The notes under the pieces: model-generated | Told to the model about the DNA's origin: nothing | The model's database searches: none | Seen by the model: the letters and a program-made list of their open reading frames with translations, nothing else | In this document: positions 7,494 through 17,077 of the stretch, one piece after another | Position numbering within the stretch: position 1 is the first letter of the stretch | Layout: each line of letters opens with the position of its first letter | Origin: Chloroflexota bacterium | GTDB lineage: Bacteria > Chloroflexota > Ktedonobacteria > Ktedonobacterales > Ktedonobacteraceae | Assembly (NCBI GenBank): GCA_902810755.1 | Contig: CADDYT010000138.1 | Span: 1-17,077, forward strand | Length of the DNA: 17,077 bases | Direction of reading: 5' to 3' | Program-made: the position numbers and the translations under genes

Positions 7494-7522
7494 TTTACAA
7501 TTCTCTGCCGATATGCTATTAT
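7494..7522 (+). promoter_or_regulatory. Promoter of tRNA-Ala(CGC)
   Basis: TTTACA (7494-7499), a 17-bp spacer and TATTAT (7517-7522). The predicted start is near 7529, six nt before the mature tRNA. Confidence 0.65.
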
Positions 7523-7534
7523 CATTTCTGCCCA

Positions 7535-7607
7535 GGGGATGTAGCTCAGCTGGGAGAGCGCGACAATCGCACTGTCGAGGTCAGGGGTTCGAGCCCCCTC
7601 ATCTCCA
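7535..7607 (+). tRNA. tRNA-Ala (anticodon CGC)
   Basis: A 73-nt cloverleaf is complete: acceptor GGGGATG/CATCTCC, D arm GCTC/GAGC, anticodon stem CGACA/TGTCG with loop ATCGCAC (anticodon CGC, 7568-7570), and T arm AGGGG-TTCGAGC-CCCCT. The G3:U70 pair, the alanine identity element, is present, with discriminator A73. CC but not A of the 3' CCA is encoded (next base T), so the end must be completed after transcription. It decodes GCG. Confidence 0.93.
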
Positions 7608-7656
7608 CCTTGCTTCCCGACTACCATGACTTTTGGATAAGGACAGGGAAAATGCC

Positions 7657-7685
7657 TTGCAAATAGCAAAGCATTGTGATATAGT
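7657..7685 (+). promoter_or_regulatory. Promoter of the T-box / tRNA-Ala(GGC) / leuS transcript
   Basis: TTGCAA (7657-7662), a 17-bp spacer and TATAGT (7680-7685). The predicted start near 7691 is immediately before the T-box Stem I sequence. Confidence 0.6.
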
Positions 7686-7951
7686 ACGGGAGCAATAAAC
7701 AGTTGCAGCGATCAGGAGTAGTAGGCCAGACTGATTGCGAAACAGAGAGCAGCCGGGTGGTGCGAGGCTGTAAACGCAAAGAAGTGACCGAACTCGCCTG
7801 GGAGCAAAAGGTGTGAACGTTTTTGCCGGTGGTCTATAGAAGTATCTATGAGTACCGGCGGCAAGCCTAGCACTTTTCGGGACGCCCGTTATCGCGTGGA
7901 ATGAGTGTATATCAGACTCATTCTTATTCTCGTATCGTTCGTACCACGTCT

Positions 7952-8027
7952 GGGCCTGTAGCGCAGCTGGGAGAGCGCCTCCATGGCATGGAGGAGGTCA
8001 GGGGTTCGAATCCCCTCAGGTCCACCA
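7952..8027 (+). tRNA. tRNA-Ala (anticodon GGC) embedded in the T-box leader
   Basis: 76 nt including an encoded CCA (8025-8027). Acceptor GGGCCTG/CAGGTCC with the G3:U70 alanine signal, D arm GCGC/GAGC (one imperfect pair), anticodon stem CCTCC/GGAGG with loop ATGGCAT (anticodon GGC, 7985-7987), and T arm AGGGG-TTCGAAT-CCCCT. It decodes GCC and GCU. No convincing promoter lies in 7860-7951 and a short T-run (8028-8032) follows. It therefore appears to be released from the T-box transcript by processing. Confidence 0.95.
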
Positions 8028-8038
8028 TTTTTATCCTT

Positions 8039-8069
8039 CTCGTTTCGGATCTGTACGAGGCGAGACGAG
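8039..8069 (+). promoter_or_regulatory. Hairpin between tRNA-Ala(GGC) and the T-box antiterminator
   Basis: CTCGTTTCG (8039-8047) pairs with CGAGACGAG (8061-8069), with one G-T pair and a 13-nt loop. Its place just before the antiterminator fits Stem III of a T-box leader. Confidence 0.45.
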
Positions 8070-8122
8070 CGCGAGAATGAATTTGATATAAAGTCAGGGT
8101 GGTACCACGGAATTGCTCTACG

Positions 8123-8153
8123 CCTTTCGTCCCGAGGGATGAAAGGTTTTTTT
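8123..8153 (+). terminator. T-box-controlled terminator before leuS
   Basis: CCTTTCGTCCC (8123-8133) pairs with GGGATGAAAGG (8136-8146), one G-T pair, followed by seven T (8147-8153). CGTCCC in the left arm can instead pair with AGGG of the T-box sequence to form the antiterminator. Confidence 0.92.
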
Positions 8154-8242
8154 ATTGCCGTTTGTTTTCAGGAAATTGTGTATTCGGCATTCATTGCGTA
8201 TTCGTCATTCATCATGAAGGAGAGAAGGGAGCGAGAAAGGTT

Positions 8243-10717
8243 ATGATTACGCGAACAAAGTATAATCCGAAAGAAATTGAACCGAGATGGCAGAAGCGGT
8301 GGGAGGAGGAACGTCTCTATCACGCTCCCGACAACTCGCCGAAGCCGAAATTTTATCACCTGGTGATGTTTCCCTACCCGTCTGGCGACCTGCATATGGG
8401 CCACTGGTATAACTATTCGCCGTTTGACGCCTATGGCCGCTTTATGCGCATGCAGGGCTATAATGTGATGCAGCCCATCGGCTTCGATGCCTTTGGCCTG
8501 CCTGCGGAGAATGCCGCCATCAAACGCGGGGTGCAGGCGCGCACATGGACACTGGCGAACGTCGAGAATATGCGCAAGCAACTGCGTATGATGGGCGCGG
8601 GCTGGGACTGGGAGCGTGAAGTTGTCACCTGCCTGCCCGACTATTATAAGTGGACGCAATGGCTGTTCCTGCAATTCTACAAGCATGGGCTGGCCTATCG
8701 CACGAAAGCGCCCGCCAACTGGTGTCCCGGCTGCAATACGACGCTGGCGAACGAGCAGGTGCTGGCCAATGGTACTTGCGAACGCTGCGGCAGCACCGTG
8801 GAGCGGCGCGAGATTGACCAGTGGCTACTGCGCATCACCGCCTATGCCGAAGAACTGCTGAACTTCGATGAGATCGAGTGGCCGGAAAAGACGGTCACCA
8901 TGCAGCGCAACTGGATCGGGCGCAGCGAGGGCGCGGAGATTCGCTTCTACACCGAGATCGAGGGCAGGCGCGAGGAGATTCCGGTCTTCACCACACGCCC
9001 GGACACAATTTACGGCGCGACCTTCTTCGTACTGGCCCCCGAACATCCGCTGGTCGAGAAGATCACCACGCCCGAACAGCGCGCCGCCGTCGAGGCTTAC
9101 GTGGAGCAGGCGCGGCGCATGACCGAGATCGAGCGCATGAGTACGGAGAAGGAGAAGACGGGCGTCTTCACCGGCGGCTACGTCACCAACCCGGTCAGCG
9201 GCGAGAAGGTTCCCGTCTGGATCGCCGACTACGTGCTGATGGGCTACGGCTCGGGCGCGATCATGGGCGTTCCCGCCCACGACCAGCGCGACTTCGAGTT
9301 TGCGCGCAAGTTCGGCATTCCCATCGTCGAGGTCATCCGGCCCGAAGGTGAGGAGCCGAGCAACCCGGAAACATGGACGGAGGCGCGTGTCGCGCAGGGG
9401 ACGATGGTCAATTCCGGCCCCTTCAGCGGCACGCCCGGCGAGGAGGCCATCGCGAAGGTCACGCGCTACCTGGAGGAGCAGGGCATCGGCAAGTTTATGG
9501 TCACCTATCGCCTGCGTGACTGGCTGATCAGCCGCCAGAGGTACTGGGGCGCGCCCATCCCCATCGTCTACTGCCCGCAGCATGGCACCGTTCCCGTACC
9601 GGAGGAGCAGCTGCCCGTCTGGCTGCCGGAGAACGTGCAGTTCAAGCCCACCGGGGAGTCGCCGCTGCGCTACGAGCCGGAGTTTCTGAACACGACCTGC
9701 CCCATCTGCGGCGGTCCTGCCACACGCGAGGCCGATACGATGGACACCTTCATCTGTTCGTCCTGGTACTTCCTGCGCTACGCCGACGCACACAACAATG
9801 AGCAGGCATGGAGCATGGAGAAGATAGCGCGCTGGCTGCCCGTCGATCAGTACGTCGGCGGCGCGGAACATGCCGTGATGCACCTGCTGTACGCGCGCTT
9901 CTTCGTCAAGGCGCTGCGCGATATGGGCTACCTGAACTTCAACGAGCCGTTCAAACGCCTGTATCATCAGGGCATGGTGCTGGGCGCCGACGGGCAGAAG
10001 ATGTCCAAGTCGCGCGGCAACGTCGAAGCGCCCGACAAGTACGTCGAGAAGTACGGGGCCGATACCGTCCGCCTGTACATGATGTTCATCGGGCCATTCG
10101 ATCAGGGCGGCTCGTTTATCCCGGAAAACCTGGAGGGCGTCTGGCGTTTCCTGAACCGCTTCTGGAGCCTGGTCACCGATAGCTGGGTCACGGGCAGCGT
10201 CAGTAGCGAGGAGACGGCGGAGAGTCGGGCTATCGAGCGCCTGCGCCACAAGACCATCCAGCGCGTCACGGAAGACCTGCGCGAGTTCCGCTTCAACACA
10301 GCTCTGGCCGCGCTGATGGAAGCCAACAACATCATGCTGAAACAGCAACACGAGCCGGTTGCGCGCACGGCCATCTACCGTCGCATGCTGGAAACGATGA
10401 TGCAATTGCTGGCTCCGATGGCCCCGCACATCACCGAGGAGCTGTGGCATCTAACCGGCCATAGCGGTAGCATCCACGTGACCGAATGGCCAACCTATAA
10501 CGAGGCGATGGTGCAGGACGAGACCTTCACGCTGGTGCTGCAGGTCAACGGCAAAGTGCGCGAGCGCGTCGAGGTAGCGACGACCATCAGCGAGCAGGAG
10601 GCACGCGCGCTGGCGCTGAGCAACCCGCGTGTCGCTTCGTTCATCGGCGAGTCGACTGTGCAGAAAGTCATCTACGTCCCCGGTCGTCTGGTCAACGTCG
10701 TCGTCAACAACGGGTAA
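8243..10717 (+). CDS. leuS: Leucyl-tRNA synthetase
   Basis: 824 aa, full length for bacterial LeuRS. It charges tRNA-Leu with leucine in the cytoplasm. The start MITRTKYNPKEIEPRWQKRW at 8243 matches the family N terminus, with AAGGGAG (8225-8231) upstream; the frame is open farther upstream only because it crosses the leader. The class I signatures are HMGH (residues 51-54) and KMSKS (586-590). A zinc-type cluster CPGC (161-164) and CERC (179-182) lies in the catalytic insert. The CP1 editing domain has TTRPDTIYG (250-258) and GVPAHDQRDF with Asp347, the residue that holds the amino group of mischarged amino acids, so proofreading looks intact. The C-terminal anticodon-binding and LeuS-C regions (about 680-824) are present. 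Expression is expected to be induced by uncharged tRNA-Leu through the T-box leader. Confidence 0.98.
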   Translation: MITRTKYNPKEIEPRWQKRWEEERLYHAPDNSPKPKFYHLVMFPYPSGDLHMGHWYNYSPFDAYGRFMRMQGYNVMQPIGFDAFGLPAENAAIKRGVQARTWTLANVENMRKQLRMMGAGWDWEREVVTCLPDYYKWTQWLFLQFYKHGLAYRTKAPANWCPGCNTTLANEQVLANGTCERCGSTVERREIDQWLLRITAYAEELLNFDEIEWPEKTVTMQRNWIGRSEGAEIRFYTEIEGRREEIPVFTTRPDTIYGATFFVLAPEHPLVEKITTPEQRAAVEAYVEQARRMTEIERMSTEKEKTGVFTGGYVTNPVSGEKVPVWIADYVLMGYGSGAIMGVPAHDQRDFEFARKFGIPIVEVIRPEGEEPSNPETWTEARVAQGTMVNSGPFSGTPGEEAIAKVTRYLEEQGIGKFMVTYRLRDWLISRQRYWGAPIPIVYCPQHGTVPVPEEQLPVWLPENVQFKPTGESPLRYEPEFLNTTCPICGGPATREADTMDTFICSSWYFLRYADAHNNEQAWSMEKIARWLPVDQYVGGAEHAVMHLLYARFFVKALRDMGYLNFNEPFKRLYHQGMVLGADGQKMSKSRGNVEAPDKYVEKYGADTVRLYMMFIGPFDQGGSFIPENLEGVWRFLNRFWSLVTDSWVTGSVSSEETAESRAIERLRHKTIQRVTEDLREFRFNTALAALMEANNIMLKQQHEPVARTAIYRRMLETMMQLLAPMAPHITEELWHLTGHSGSIHVTEWPTYNEAMVQDETFTLVLQVNGKVRERVEVATTISEQEARALALSNPRVASFIGESTVQKVIYVPGRLVNVVVNNG

Positions 10718-12042: not shown

Positions 12043-13227
12043 ATGCGCATTATCCTCTATCTTGGCAAGGGCGGAGTGGGGAAGACGACCATTTCCGCCG
12101 CTACCGCCGTGCGCTCCGCTATGTCTGGCAAACGCACGCTCGTCGTCAGCACCGACCTGGCGCACAGCCTGGCGGACTGTCTTAATCGCCCGCTCACTTC
12201 CGAGCCAGGCGAAATCGCGCCGAACCTGTGGGCGCAGGAAGTCAACGTTCTCGATGAGATGCGCCGTAGCTGGGGCAAATTGCAGGAGACAATGAGCAGG
12301 CTGCTGCGCCAGCGTGGCATGGACGCGGTGCTGGCCGAAGAGCTGGCCCTCATCCCCGGCATGGACGAGATTGTCAGTCTGATCAACATCTACCGCAACG
12401 CGCAGCAGGGCAACTTCGAGGTGGTTGTTATCGATGCCGCGCCCACCGGTGAGACGGTGCGCCTGCTAAGCATGCCCGATACCTTCCAGATGTACGCCGG
12501 GCGGCTCAACAGCCTGCAAAACAGCCTTGCGCGGCCATTCCTCAAGGCCGTTATTCCCACAACCGAGATACTGGAGGCCGTACAGGTACTCAGCGAGCGC
12601 GTCAAAACGCTGCGCACGGTGCTGACCAACCCGGATATCAGCTCCTATCGCCCGGTGGTCAATCCCGAACGCATGGTCATCAAAGAGGCTCTGCGCGCCG
12701 AAACCTACCTTGCCCTCTTCGGCTACCCCATCGATGCCGTCATCTGCAACCGCGTCATCGCCCCCGGCGACTATCAAGATACGTTCATGCAGGAGATGTA
12801 TCGCAACCAGGAGAAGCTGCGCCTGCAAATTCACCAGACCTTCGCGCCGCTGCCCATCTGGGAAGCTCCTTACTACTCGCACGAAATCCTGGGCGTCAGC
12901 CAGCTTGGCGCGCTGGCGCAGACCATCTTCGGCGACACCGACCCCACGCAAATCTTCTATCGCGGCCCCGTGCAGGAAGTGACGCAGCAAGGCGAGGAAT
13001 ACATCCTGAGCCTGCCGCTGCCGCATGTCGAAATGGACAAAGTGCTGATGACGCGCAAAGGCGACGAAATGATCATCGAGATCGGCAATTTCAAACGCGA
13101 GATCACCCTACCCGCTGTACTCGCCAATCAGGAAGCCACGGTCGCCCGCTTCGTCAACAAGGCCCTCGAAATCCACTTTACGGCCCGCCAGAACGAAGGC
13201 GAGGAAGAGCAGGAGAAATCAGCATGA
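12043..13227 (+). CDS. ArsA/Get3-family ATPase with C-terminal Hsp20-like domain
   Basis: 394 aa; AAGGA (12026-12030) upstream. The N terminus carries the deviant Walker A loop GKGGVGKTT (8-16) with signature Lys9. It continues with the Switch I-type STDLAHSLADCL (about 36-47) and the Switch II motif IDAAPTGETVRLLSMP with Asp131. These define the ArsA/Get3 branch of SIMIBI ATPases, which form nucleotide-gated dimers. Residues about 318-385 (LSLPLPHVEMDKV...GDEMIIEIGNFKREITLP) match the Hsp20/alpha-crystallin-like domain found at the C terminus of many bacterial ArsA-like proteins. The length fits a single ATPase unit, not the duplicated arsenite-pump ArsA. No arsB, arsR or other ars gene is nearby, and no CxxC metal pair typical of eukaryotic Get3 is seen, so an arsenic role is unlikely. 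A chaperone or membrane-protein-handling role is inferred only. It is transcribed alone and ends in a terminator. Confidence 0.93.
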   Translation: MRIILYLGKGGVGKTTISAATAVRSAMSGKRTLVVSTDLAHSLADCLNRPLTSEPGEIAPNLWAQEVNVLDEMRRSWGKLQETMSRLLRQRGMDAVLAEELALIPGMDEIVSLINIYRNAQQGNFEVVVIDAAPTGETVRLLSMPDTFQMYAGRLNSLQNSLARPFLKAVIPTTEILEAVQVLSERVKTLRTVLTNPDISSYRPVVNPERMVIKEALRAETYLALFGYPIDAVICNRVIAPGDYQDTFMQEMYRNQEKLRLQIHQTFAPLPIWEAPYYSHEILGVSQLGALAQTIFGDTDPTQIFYRGPVQEVTQQGEEYILSLPLPHVEMDKVLMTRKGDEMIIEIGNFKREITLPAVLANQEATVARFVNKALEIHFTARQNEGEEEQEKSA

Positions 13228-15118: not shown

Positions 15119-16000
15119 TTATGCTGTTCTGGCGAATGAGCCGAGGACCTTGCAGAAGATGGTGTGACCGGCGAGGTCGGCGAGGGCGCTGCGCACGTGT
15201 GGGTCGTCGCGGTGGCCCTCGAAGTCGAGGTAGAAGACGTATTCCCAGATGCGCTGGCGCGATGGGCGCGATTCGAGCTTGAGCAGGTTGATATTGCGCT
15301 CCGCCAGCACACCCAGGCATTTGTAGAGCGAGCCGGGCTGGTGGGACGTTGCCATGACGAGCATGGTTTTGGCCGGGCCATCACGGCGTGGGGCTGGCTC
15401 GCGACCGAGGGCAATGAAGCGCGTGTAGTTATCCTGGATGGTCTGGATACCGGCGGCCAGGATGTCCAGCGCGTAGAGTTCTGCCGCGCCACGCCCGGCA
15501 ACGGCGGCGACGCCCATCAATTGCTCATCGCGAATCATCTTCGCGCTGCCTGCCGTATCGTAGGTGGCAACGATCTCGACGCCGAGTTCGCGCAGGTAGA
15601 CATCGCACTGCGCCAGGGCCTGTGGGTGCGAGATAACTCGTTTGATATCGCTTAATTGCTGGCCCGGCAGGCAAAGCAGACAGTGATTGACGGGATGGCT
15701 GATCTCGCCGATGACAAAGAGGTCGTGCTGACGCAACAGGTCGTAGACATCGTTGATACTGCCCGCCTGGGAATTCTCGACAGGGACAAGGCCATAACTG
15801 ACTTCGGCGGCAGCAACGGCGCGAAAGACATCACTGAAGCTGCGACAGGGTAACGGCTCCGCCTGCAAGCCTGTTTGCTGGCCGAAATAGGCACGCACCG
15901 CCTCATCACCAAAAGCTCCACGTTCACCCTGAAAAGCGACGGTAATGGCCTGCCCGCTCCCGTTCTCGCGGGCGCTCTGCTGCTCGGTCGATGGTATCAT
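15119..16000 (-). CDS. pheA: Prephenate dehydratase with C-terminal ACT domain
   Basis: 293 aa, the usual length for a monofunctional enzyme. It converts prephenate to phenylpyruvate, the committed step to phenylalanine, in the cytoplasm. The start MIPSTEQQSA at 16000 has AAGGAG about 9 nt upstream; the frame extends farther but without a ribosome site. The catalytic domain begins ITVAFQGERGAFGDEA and includes VPVENSQAGSI and ISHPQALAQC. It also holds the catalytic NYTRF motif with Thr193-Arg194-Phe195, which is intact. The ACT domain (about 208-290) holds QPGSLYKCL and KLESRPSR with ESRP (243-246), the phenylalanine-binding motif, so feedback inhibition by Phe is expected. No other aromatic-pathway gene is adjacent. 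It is divergent from the DUF1697 gene across a 149-bp gap. Confidence 0.97.
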   Translation of the reverse strand: MIPSTEQQSARENGSGQAITVAFQGERGAFGDEAVRAYFGQQTGLQAEPLPCRSFSDVFRAVAAAEVSYGLVPVENSQAGSINDVYDLLRQHDLFVIGEISHPVNHCLLCLPGQQLSDIKRVISHPQALAQCDVYLRELGVEIVATYDTAGSAKMIRDEQLMGVAAVAGRGAAELYALDILAAGIQTIQDNYTRFIALGREPAPRRDGPAKTMLVMATSHQPGSLYKCLGVLAERNINLLKLESRPSRQRIWEYVFYLDFEGHRDDPHVRSALADLAGHTIFCKVLGSFARTA

Positions 16001-16068
16001 GATATTATCTCCTTCACGTTTCATTGCGCCGATTGTGCCAGTTTCCGCGCAGATTGTCAAGGCGCGGG

Positions 16069-16098
16069 GTGACATTTGAACAAAAGGACGAGTATAAT
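16069..16098 (+). promoter_or_regulatory. Promoter of the DUF1697 gene
   Basis: GTGACA (16069-16074), an 18-bp spacer and a perfect TATAAT (16093-16098). The start is predicted near 16105, about 45 nt before the gene. Confidence 0.6.
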
Positions 16099-16149
16099 GG
16101 ATGAGAGTTATCAATCAAGCAGAGCAAACGAGAAGAGAAGGAAGATGTG

Positions 16150-16736: not shown

Positions 16737-17077
16737 CTGTAATTGCTTTCTGTTCAGTTGTACTGGACACCAACGCGCTCTTGAGAGGCTCGTGAAGCGA
16801 AGTCTGGAATCTGTCCTCAATTTTGCCGACCGCTCTCAGCAAGGCGTCGCCGGGGAGGCGCACAGCGTCACATAGTCAGCTGCGGCTTGCGCCGTCGTCT
16901 GCCACTTTTGCTGTTGTGTCCTTGCATATTCGTGCTGGCGATGAAAGAAAGACAAGCCGTACGATCATTAGGGCCACTTGGCTGAGCCGGTTACCCGGCT
17001 TGCACGTGTGGTCTATCAACCAGGTCGTCTTCCTGGGATCTTGATCTCACGCAGAGATGGGAAGACTGGTCTTGAGG
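16737..17077. other. 341 bases without a supportable gene
   Basis: No ORF here has both a ribosome site and a recognisable product. A short hairpin AGCCGG-TTAC-CCGGCT lies at 16985-17000. Minus-strand frames show protein-like fragments (for example GDALLRAVGKIEDRF) broken by stops and frame changes, so a decayed gene is possible but not demonstrated. Confidence 0.4.

What the first reader, a model, noticed from the sequence alone, without database searches (positions are those of the whole stretch)
7657..8245. A tRNA-Ala gene lies inside the T-box riboswitch of leuS
Seen: a promoter (7657-7685), T-box Stem I with Leu specifier CTC (7793-7795), an intact tRNA-Ala(GGC) with CCA (7952-8027), then the T-box AGGGTGGTACCACG (8096-8109), a terminator with seven T, and leuS. 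Known: T-box leaders are normally a continuous 200-300-nt RNA in which Stem I and the antiterminator hold the two ends of one tRNA. Here a structural tRNA separates them. If co-transcribed, RNase P and 3' processing would cut the sensing domain from the antiterminator. Alanine tRNA would be made on every initiation whether or not leuS is read. This could couple alanine-tRNA supply to leucine sensing, or make sensing strictly co-transcriptional. I know of no described case of this arrangement.
Basis: partly seen in the sequence, partly recalled or inferred. Interest (0 to 1): 0.88.

Follow-up and report, generated by a model that had tools for sequence, protein, structure and literature searches.

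The report
tRNA gene inside a leucine riboswitch
The leader RNA that switches the leucyl-tRNA synthetase gene on or off carries a complete alanine tRNA gene at the tip of one of its own hairpins, an arrangement found again in two bacterial phyla, so one RNA seems to be both a leucine sensor and a tRNA precursor.

Summary
Rfam's T-box model covers 7699-8137 in one match (74 bits, E 4e-16, below the curated 93). Its large insert is in the loop of Stem III, which holds an intact tRNA-Ala(GGC), 7952-8027. The tRNA does not pull the riboswitch apart: a helix of up to 35 pairs (7903-7944 with 8053-8095) closes Stem III beneath it, and the Stem III purine motif is kept.

It is not a one-off. A tRNA-blind pattern (tRNA 3' end, then T-box) hits 26 of 400 Chloroflexota, 41 of 113 relatives of a Peptococcaceae genome and 81 of 398 of Thermosyntropha's phylum (2 look spurious), but 0 of 295 in a fourth group. 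All 89 parsed loci carry tRNA-Ala(GGC); leuS follows in 58 of 61 and 28 of 30. It is often the only GGC gene found.

Most likely one promoter makes a transcript that is both leucine sensor and pre-tRNA-Ala, and the attenuator doubles as tRNA terminator. tRNA-Ala output should not depend on leucine. A promoter-like site inside the leader in 16 of 29 Ktedonobacteria loci, not in the window, keeps a two-promoter rival alive. I found no report in the papers searched.

The parts
7657..7685 (+). Promoter-like TTGCAA-17-TATAGT upstream of Stem I (P1)
   Evidence: same hexamers and spacing in L003, L088, L089, L098; L097 has TATTAT
7699..8137 (+). T-box leader, Leu type, with the tRNA gene in the loop of Stem III
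   Evidence: RF00230, 74 bits, E 4e-16, model 1-219 complete, one match across the tRNA; below gathering 93
7793..7795 (+). Specifier codon CTC (Leu) in Stem I
   Evidence: read; in 104 loci a pattern read CTC in 88, CTT in 1 and nothing in 15; of those 15 most show CTC by eye
7870..7893 (+). 3' strand of Stem II and the Stem IIA/B element (CGGGACGCCCGTTA); limits approximate
   Evidence: alignment to RF00230
7903..7907 (+). Purine motif GAGTG (5'-RRRNG) that precedes Stem III
   Evidence: motif described in PMC7778990 and PMC7583486 (passages)
7908..7944 (+). Stem III, 5' arm
   Evidence: pairs with 8053-8090
7952..8027 (+). tRNA-Ala(GGC), CCA encoded, A73 and G3-U70, U at -1
8053..8090 (+). 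Stem III, 3' arm
8091..8092 (+). AA that follows Stem III
8096..8109 (+). T-box sequence AGGGTGGTACCACG; bulge UGGU at 8100-8103
8097..8133 (+). Antiterminator: GGG/CCC (8097-8099 with 8131-8133), bulge, ACG/CGT (8107-8109 with 8128-8130)
   Evidence: drawn by analogy with known T-boxes; evaluated
8122..8153 (+). Intrinsic terminator, 11-bp stem (8122-8147), then seven T (8147-8153); its 5' strand overlaps the antiterminator's 3' strand
   Evidence: -16.6 kcal/mol
8243..10717 (+). leuS, leucyl-tRNA synthetase, 824 aa
   Evidence: NCBIfam TIGR00396, 1017 bits

Best explanation
This is a leucine-sensing, transcription-attenuating T-box leader of leuS whose Stem III carries a working tRNA-Ala(GGC) gene in place of its terminal loop. 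One transcript has two products. Shown by sequence and comparison: the nesting, the pairing of both Stem III arms under the tRNA, the conserved T-box motifs, the conserved tRNA identity, and the lack of a recognisable terminator between tRNA and T-box. Inferred: (1) RNA polymerase starts at P1 and makes Stem I, Stem II, then the tRNA, which folds alone at the tip of Stem III; (2) the Stem III helix restores the normal geometry, so uncharged tRNA-Leu bridges specifier and antiterminator in the still uncut nascent RNA; (3) with leucine plentiful the transcript ends near 8153 and is a pre-tRNA-Ala; with uncharged tRNA-Leu it runs on into leuS; (4) in both cases RNase P and 3' processing free the tRNA, the helix near the cut sites perhaps delaying this until after the switch decision; (5) in read-through RNA this also leaves a leuS mRNA with a new 5' end just before the antiterminator. 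Alanine tRNA output would follow promoter activity, not leucine.
For: Single RF00230 match across the tRNA, insert in Stem III; 5 of 6, 2 of 3 and 1 of 2 relatives above gathering with the tRNA inside. Stem III arms in the window -42.1 kcal/mol, 0 of 100 shuffles as low; over 75 non-identical loci matched arms average -15.4, arms swapped between loci -10.4. RRRNG-stem-AA in 55 of 75 loci against 9.1 on average (at most 16) when the 5' arm is shuffled. Motif-anchored pairing without fitting: 74% standard pairs in 74 short-armed loci, 63% with 3' arms permuted, at most 69% in 2000. The tRNA bears the marks of a chargeable one: GGC anticodon in 89 of 89 parsed loci (59 of 59 given, window included; 30 of 33 given; 88 distinct); A73 and G3-U70 in 94 of 94 with CCA, of 104. 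U at -1, best for RNase P (PMC9433436, passages), in 90 of 104 against 22% background. It is the only GGC gene found in 13 of 18 and 38 of 41 genomes with the pattern. A terminator-like hairpin between tRNA and T-box in 0 of 104, after the T-box in 92 of 104; stand-alone copies have one in 34 of 46. Where the T-box is lost (L007, L150-L152) the tRNA and a terminator-like hairpin remain; leuS follows in L007.
Against: No transcript data; nothing here shows that P1 is used or that the tRNA is cut out. The window scores below Rfam's gathering cut-off (74 against 93), as do L003, L225 and L052. Free folding of 7900-8095 does not give the cloverleaf; enforcing it costs 6.4 kcal/mol. Only 37 of 75 loci beat shuffles at 5% on arm pairing; many arms are short. 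20 of 75 loci lack the strict RRRNG-stem-AA. A promoter-like site between specifier and tRNA occurs in 16 of 89 loci, 2.7 expected in shuffles, all 16 Ktedonobacteria. On the LeuS tree the arrangement is scattered (12 of 81 rows, at least 6 changes forced by supported branches), so gain and loss are frequent.
Confidence: 0.68

Rival explanations
1. Two overlapping units: a second promoter inside the T-box (over Stem IIA/B) drives tRNA-Ala, and the T-box served by P1 merely shares the terminator. Short transcripts lack Stem I and would always stop, so tRNA-Ala is made constitutively.
For: TTGTCG or TTGCCG-17-TATAAT-like sites at 9-10 of 12 lie there in 16 of 29 Ktedonobacteria loci with a readable specifier; 2.7 of all 89 loci expected in shuffles. 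Stand-alone GGC copies have a promoter-like site within 100 nt in 35 of 46.
Against: Absent from the window (best reading TTTTCG-17-TGGAAT, 7 of 12, by eye; none listed) and from the 60 other loci scored (8 from the other Chloroflexota, 52 Bacillota). The hexamers coincide with conserved T-box parts (Stem II, pseudoknot, purine string), and related loci count many times.
Confidence: 0.2
2. The tRNA is a parked gene with no functional link: Stem III's tip tolerates insertions, and nesting only borrows a promoter and a terminator.
For: Stem III length and loop vary between T-boxes (PMC7430163, PMC7583486, passages); in other genomes the tRNA-Ala lies upstream of a leuS T-box (L009, L013, L017, L019) or stands alone.
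Against: Same isoacceptor, same position and same strand in every parsed locus, two phyla; the two arms keep pairing despite different sequences.
Confidence: 0.3
3. The element acts in cis: the embedded tRNA's own ACCA end pairs with the UGGU bulge of the T-box, so leuS read-through also reports tRNA-Ala maturation or charging.
For: A73-CCA in 94 of 94 loci with CCA and UGGU in 101 of 104 are complementary, and the acceptor end sits one Stem III length from the antiterminator.
Against: The complementarity is expected anyway if tRNA-Leu also ends in ACCA (recalled); before 3' processing the end is blocked, as in charged tRNA; the trailer varies from 10 to 69 nt.
Confidence: 0.07
4. The tRNA is a pseudo-tRNA used only as a structural cap for Stem III.
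For: It sits at the tip of the stem.
Against: G3-U70 and A73 are kept in 94 of 94, GGC in 89 of 89, U at -1 in 90 of 104, and it is the only GGC gene found in 13 of 18 and 38 of 41 genomes.
Confidence: 0.02

Closest known systems
T-box riboswitch (Rfam RF00230), transcription-attenuating, Leu-specific leuS leader
   Same: Stem I with Leu specifier, Stem II, IIA/B, Stem III with RRRNG/AA flanks, T-box bulge UGGU, antiterminator and terminator, aminoacyl-tRNA synthetase downstream
   Different: Stem III ends in a complete tRNA-Ala gene, so the terminated leader is also a pre-tRNA. TBDB, a 2020 review and a 2008 survey (passages only) do not mention it in what I saw; [quoted passage not shown]
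tRNA genes co-transcribed with mRNAs (such as E. coli metY-nusA-infB or tyrU-tufB; recalled, no call)
   Same: A tRNA is cut from a transcript that also carries a protein gene
   Different: There the tRNA is an operon member beside the mRNA; here it lies inside a regulatory RNA, between its sensor and its switch
T-box leaders cut or decayed by nucleases (B. subtilis thrS, recalled, no call; S. aureus met leader, PMC3771891, passages)
   Same: Leader RNA or its mRNA is a nuclease target
   Different: In S. aureus RNase J2 and RNase III are implicated in decay; here the predicted cutter is tRNA maturation
tRNAs inside rRNA precursor spacers (recalled, no call)
   Same: tRNA nested in a precursor of another functional RNA
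   Different: That precursor makes no regulatory decision

Membership tests
T-box riboswitch RF00230 | Covariance-model match over the whole model | tested here: inconclusive
   Window 74 bits, E 4e-16, full length, below gathering 93; 8 of 11 embedded relatives tested pass 93 (5 of 6, 2 of 3, 1 of 2)
T-box riboswitch RF00230 | Specifier codon matching the downstream synthetase | tested here: met
   CTC = Leu, leuS downstream
T-box riboswitch RF00230 | T-box sequence with UGGN bulge | tested here: met
   AGGGTGGTACCACG, UGGU
T-box riboswitch RF00230 | Mutually exclusive antiterminator and terminator | tested here: met
   Shared strand 8126-8132; terminator -16.6, drawn antiterminator -3.9 kcal/mol without tRNA
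T-box riboswitch RF00230 | RRRNG-Stem III-AA discriminator | tested here: met
   Window and 54 of 74 other loci
T-box riboswitch RF00230 | Binds uncharged tRNA-Leu and switches | not testable with these tools
   needs in vitro or reporter assays
tRNA-Ala gene | Cloverleaf, GGC anticodon, CCA, G3-U70 | tested here: met
tRNA-Ala gene | Is transcribed, excised and charged | not testable with these tools
   supported indirectly by U at -1 and by being the only GGC gene found in 13 of 18 and 38 of 41 genomes
Stand-alone tRNA transcription unit | Own promoter just upstream | tested here: not met
   None at 9 of 12 or better in the window; but 16 of 29 Ktedonobacteria loci have one between specifier and tRNA
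Stand-alone tRNA transcription unit | Own terminator just downstream | tested here: not met
   terminator-like hairpin between tRNA and T-box in 0 of 104 loci, window included

The most novel reading that the evidence does not exclude
A bifunctional nested RNA in which tRNA maturation is part of the switch: the embedded tRNA-Ala's ACCA end or its excision by RNase P feeds back on the leucine T-box (cis pairing with UGGU, or cutting that fixes or resets the decision), so leuS expression also reads alanine-tRNA maturation or charging.
Probability: 0.1. Interest if true: 0.93.

Novelty: new variant of a known kind. Interest (0 to 1): 0.8.

Why it matters
T-box leaders are usually thought of as RNA that is thrown away when transcription stops. 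Here the stopped product would itself be needed: a tRNA, often the only tRNA-Ala(GGC) gene found in the genome. That makes one RNA serve as sensor, as switch and as precursor of another RNA, and sets two machineries (the T-box and RNase P, both of which measure tRNA) to act on the same few nucleotides. It gives a direct test of how fast pre-tRNA processing is compared with a riboswitch decision, and of what the tip of Stem III may carry. Practically, covariance searches can lose such leaders below cut-off (the window scores 74 against 93), and a tRNA gene annotated before leuS can hide a riboswitch.

Tried and rejected
Chance juxtaposition: rejected; the reversed control pattern is 0 in the tables, and the arrangement recurs. 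Assembly artefact: rejected; named isolates carry it (Tengunoibacter tsumagoiensis L002, Desulfofundulus thermobenzoicus L015, Thermosyntropha lipolytica L018/L226, Halonatronum saccharophilum L052). tRNA insertion that breaks the T-box: rejected; the arms pair and the motifs are kept. Coupling of tRNA-Ala output to leucine: rejected on logic, since the tRNA lies upstream of the attenuator. A single origin readable from LeuS: not shown; the label is scattered. Counting as a new group: dropped, because its genomes repeat those. What group one search covers is not told; it is mostly small genomes, so it is a weak negative. The hits G746 and G755 lack a CTCCACCA tRNA end and look spurious.

Limits of the counts. 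Most loci were chosen by a pattern that fixes the T arm, CCA and T-box, so those are not evidence; anticodon, G3-U70, U at -1, Stem III pairing and specifier were not part of it. The 17 loci added were chosen by anticodon GGC and are not in the 89 of 89. That 89 includes the window and one repeat (88 distinct). Three of 33 loci (L241, L243, L251) did not parse and were dropped; one identical locus of 76 was dropped and one of 30. Relatedness inflates all per-locus counts. In the class of G403 I fetched 44 regions of GGC genes that the first pattern had missed or that were second copies, not all; two of these (L193, L221) gave no GGC tRNA in my script. So 46 of 89 is a lower bound. One search was given 20 of 80 loci, 11 of 80, 50 of 80. 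leuS downstream: 37 of 61 within the first stretches, 20 more in longer ones and one through L015; of the last three, two contigs end first and for one my cut missed the T-box. Two early surveys that should be checked, Vitreschak 2008 and Gutierrez-Preciado 2009 (DOIs recalled), are not held.
Full report
WHAT IS THERE. The window belongs to a relative of Ktedonobacteria: its LeuS is nearest to Ktedonobacteraceae and Tengunoibacter proteins (tree). Upstream of leuS (8243-10717; NCBIfam TIGR00396) lies a T-box leader. Rfam RF00230 aligns end to end to 7699-8137 in a single match, E 4e-16, 74 bits; the curated cut-off is 93 (not listed at gathering), the shortfall probably due to the long insert (inference). 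The alignment places that insert in the loop of Stem III. In the loop sits a full tRNA-Ala(GGC), 7952-8027, with CCA.

The tRNA is not a spacer between Stem I and the antiterminator but the tip of Stem III. The flanks on either side of the tRNA pair: with the cloverleaf enforced, 35 pairs run from 7903/8095 to 7944/8053, and the duplex of the two arms is -42.1 kcal/mol against a mean of -21.7 for 100 shuffles, none as low. Free folding without constraint forms the lower Stem III too, but not the cloverleaf; enforcing the cloverleaf costs 6.4 kcal/mol. The purines that flank Stem III in T-boxes, 5'-RRRNG and AA-3' (PMC7778990 and PMC7583486, passages), are present as GAGTG (7903-7907) and AA (8091-8092). 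In leuS T-boxes without the tRNA similar flanks enclose an ordinary hairpin (for example L009 and L017, by eye).

HOW WIDE IT IS. I searched whole genomes with a pattern that asks for any tRNA's T arm and CCA end followed within about 40 bases by a T-box, whatever the tRNA. It matches 18 of 47 genomes of the class of Tengunoibacter, 26 of 400 drawn from its phylum (the 18 included), 41 of 113 in the class of Peptococcaceae BRH_c4b, 3 of 50 diverse genomes, 81 of 398 in the phylum of Thermosyntropha (2 look spurious, 61 of 299, repeats those genomes and is not counted) and 0 of 295 in a fourth, unnamed group of mostly small genomes. The reversed pattern gives 0 in these tables. Looking at tRNA-Ala(GGC) genes directly finds more (weaker T-box motif, CCA not encoded, longer trailers): in the Tengunoibacter class 29 of the 39 genomes with a detected GGC gene have it inside a T-box, in the Peptococcaceae class at least 46 of 89. 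L073 and Halonatronum L052 are further cases, with one T-box match across the tRNA each (94.2 and 84.1 bits). Among loci parsed without choosing the anticodon, 89 of 89 (88 distinct) are tRNA-Ala(GGC): 59 of 59, 30 of 33 given.

WHAT FOLLOWS IT. leuS follows the T-box in 28 of the 30, within 160 bases. In the 61 loci it is seen in 37 at once, in 20 more when the stretch is lengthened and in one through the longer L015, 58 of 61; of the other three, two contigs end first and one was cut badly by me. In the lengthened loci a long gene like the AMP-binding, acyl-CoA-synthetase-like gene of L015 (name by recall from its sequence) comes first: 21 of 22 parsed, the one without being a 400-base contig end, leuS about 1.75-2.25 kb after the T-box. 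There the T-box would control both.

IS THE STRUCTURE CONSERVED. Over 75 non-identical loci the two arms of one locus pair better (mean -15.4 kcal/mol) than arms swapped between loci (-10.4); 37 of 75 beat their own shuffles at 5%. RRRNG-stem of at least 4 pairs-AA is found in 55 of 75, against 9.1 on average and at most 16 with the 5' arm shuffled; by eye the misses are largely stems offset by two bases or with one mismatch. Anchoring the arms on the motifs, with no fitting to pairing, gives 74% standard pairs in 74 short-armed loci, against 63% and at most 69% in 2000 permutations. Shared ancestry inflates such counts, but the helices of different lineages differ in sequence (TATATCA/TGATATA, GGTAAA/TTTACC, GATGAGCCG/CGGCTCATC, CCAGTCACC/GGTGATTGG).

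IS THE tRNA REAL. G3-U70, the alanine identity pair (recalled), and A73 are in 94 of 94 loci with CCA (of 104); U at -1 is in 90 of 104 against 22% background, and U(-1) is what RNase P prefers (PMC9433436, passages). It is the only GGC gene detected in 13 of 18 Ktedonobacteria and 38 of 41 Peptococcaceae-class genomes with the pattern. So it looks like a gene in use, not a mimic or a cap.

UNITS OF TRANSCRIPTION. A terminator-like hairpin lies between tRNA and T-box in 0 of 104 loci; one follows the T-box in 92. In 46 stand-alone tRNA-Ala(GGC) loci, 35 have a promoter-like site within 100 bases upstream and 34 a terminator within 120 downstream; the embedded ones have such a promoter-like site in 18 of 104. 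The result that cuts against the simple reading: between specifier and tRNA a TTGTCG-17-TATAAT-like site occurs in 16 of 89 loci (2.7 in shuffles), and all 16 are among the 29 Ktedonobacteria scored. It overlaps Stem IIA/B and the purine string, so it may be T-box conservation alone, or a real second promoter. The window lacks it (7 of 12 by eye; none), as do the 60 loci from other groups.

HOW IT MOST LIKELY WORKS. [quoted passage not shown] Uncharged tRNA-Leu (anticodon GAG by complementarity, end ACCA by recall) bridges CTC and UGGU. The decision falls within 126 bases after the tRNA's last base (8027 to 8153), a few seconds of transcription at most (general knowledge), so probably before RNase P acts. 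Pairing of a pre-tRNA's leader with the RCCA end, or near the cut, is known to slow RNase P (PMC9433436, passages); here the leader pairs with the trailer, so the same effect is only an analogy. Both the stopped and the read-through RNA then yield tRNA-Ala. Since the tRNA precedes the attenuator, its supply should not follow leucine. In read-through RNA the excision would also give leuS mRNA a new 5' end just upstream of the antiterminator. All of this paragraph is inference.

HISTORY. On a LeuS tree of 81 rows the embedded label (12 rows) needs 10 changes, at least 6 on well supported branches. Same isoacceptor, position and strand favour an old state with many losses, but transfer or repeated gain are not excluded. 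Losses can be seen: in L007 and L150-L152 the tRNA and a terminator-like hairpin remain while Stem I and the T-box are gone; in L007 leuS follows.

KNOWN OR NEW. Nine literature searches and passages of TBDB, a T-box review, the 2008 BMC Genomics survey and three others show no mention. Two surveys that might contain it are not held. I therefore call it a new variant of the T-box, with the caution that a remark in an unheld paper is possible.

Noticed in passing
window 7494-7609: A second tRNA gene, tRNA-Ala(CGC), 7535-7609, with its own promoter-like site (TTTACA-17-TATTAT, 7494-7522) just upstream of the leader; a CGC gene lies some 320-430 bases before the embedded GGC gene in many Ktedonobacteria.
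   Followed up: partly
L003, L088-L092, L097-L100, L102, L103, L154, L156, L163, L215: Promoter-like TTGTCG/TTGCCG-17-TATAAT-type site overlapping Stem IIA/B between Stem I and the tRNA; possible second promoter.
   Followed up: partly
L007 2753-2890; L150-L152: T-box eroded: tRNA-Ala(GGC) followed by a hairpin like GGCCTTTCACCC...GGGCGAAAGGCC, with no Stem I or T-box sequence found; leuS follows in L007.
   Followed up: partly
L015 1154-2818; L115; L132; L258-L279: A long AMP-binding, acyl-CoA-synthetase-like gene lies between the Leu T-box and leuS in Desulfofundulus-like genomes and would come under leucine control.
   Followed up: partly
L009, L013, L017, L019: tRNA-Ala(GGC) lies upstream of a leuS T-box instead of inside it, so the tRNA-Ala/leuS neighbourhood is wider than the nesting.
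   Followed up: partly
L158-L160, L167, L216, L218, L220: Some Ktedonobacteria have a second, stand-alone tRNA-Ala(GGC) gene followed by a terminator-like hairpin.
   Followed up: partly
window 12043-13227, 15119-16114, 16948-17077: Get3/ArsA-family ATPase, prephenate dehydratase and the 3' end of a 23S rRNA on the minus strand.
   Followed up: no
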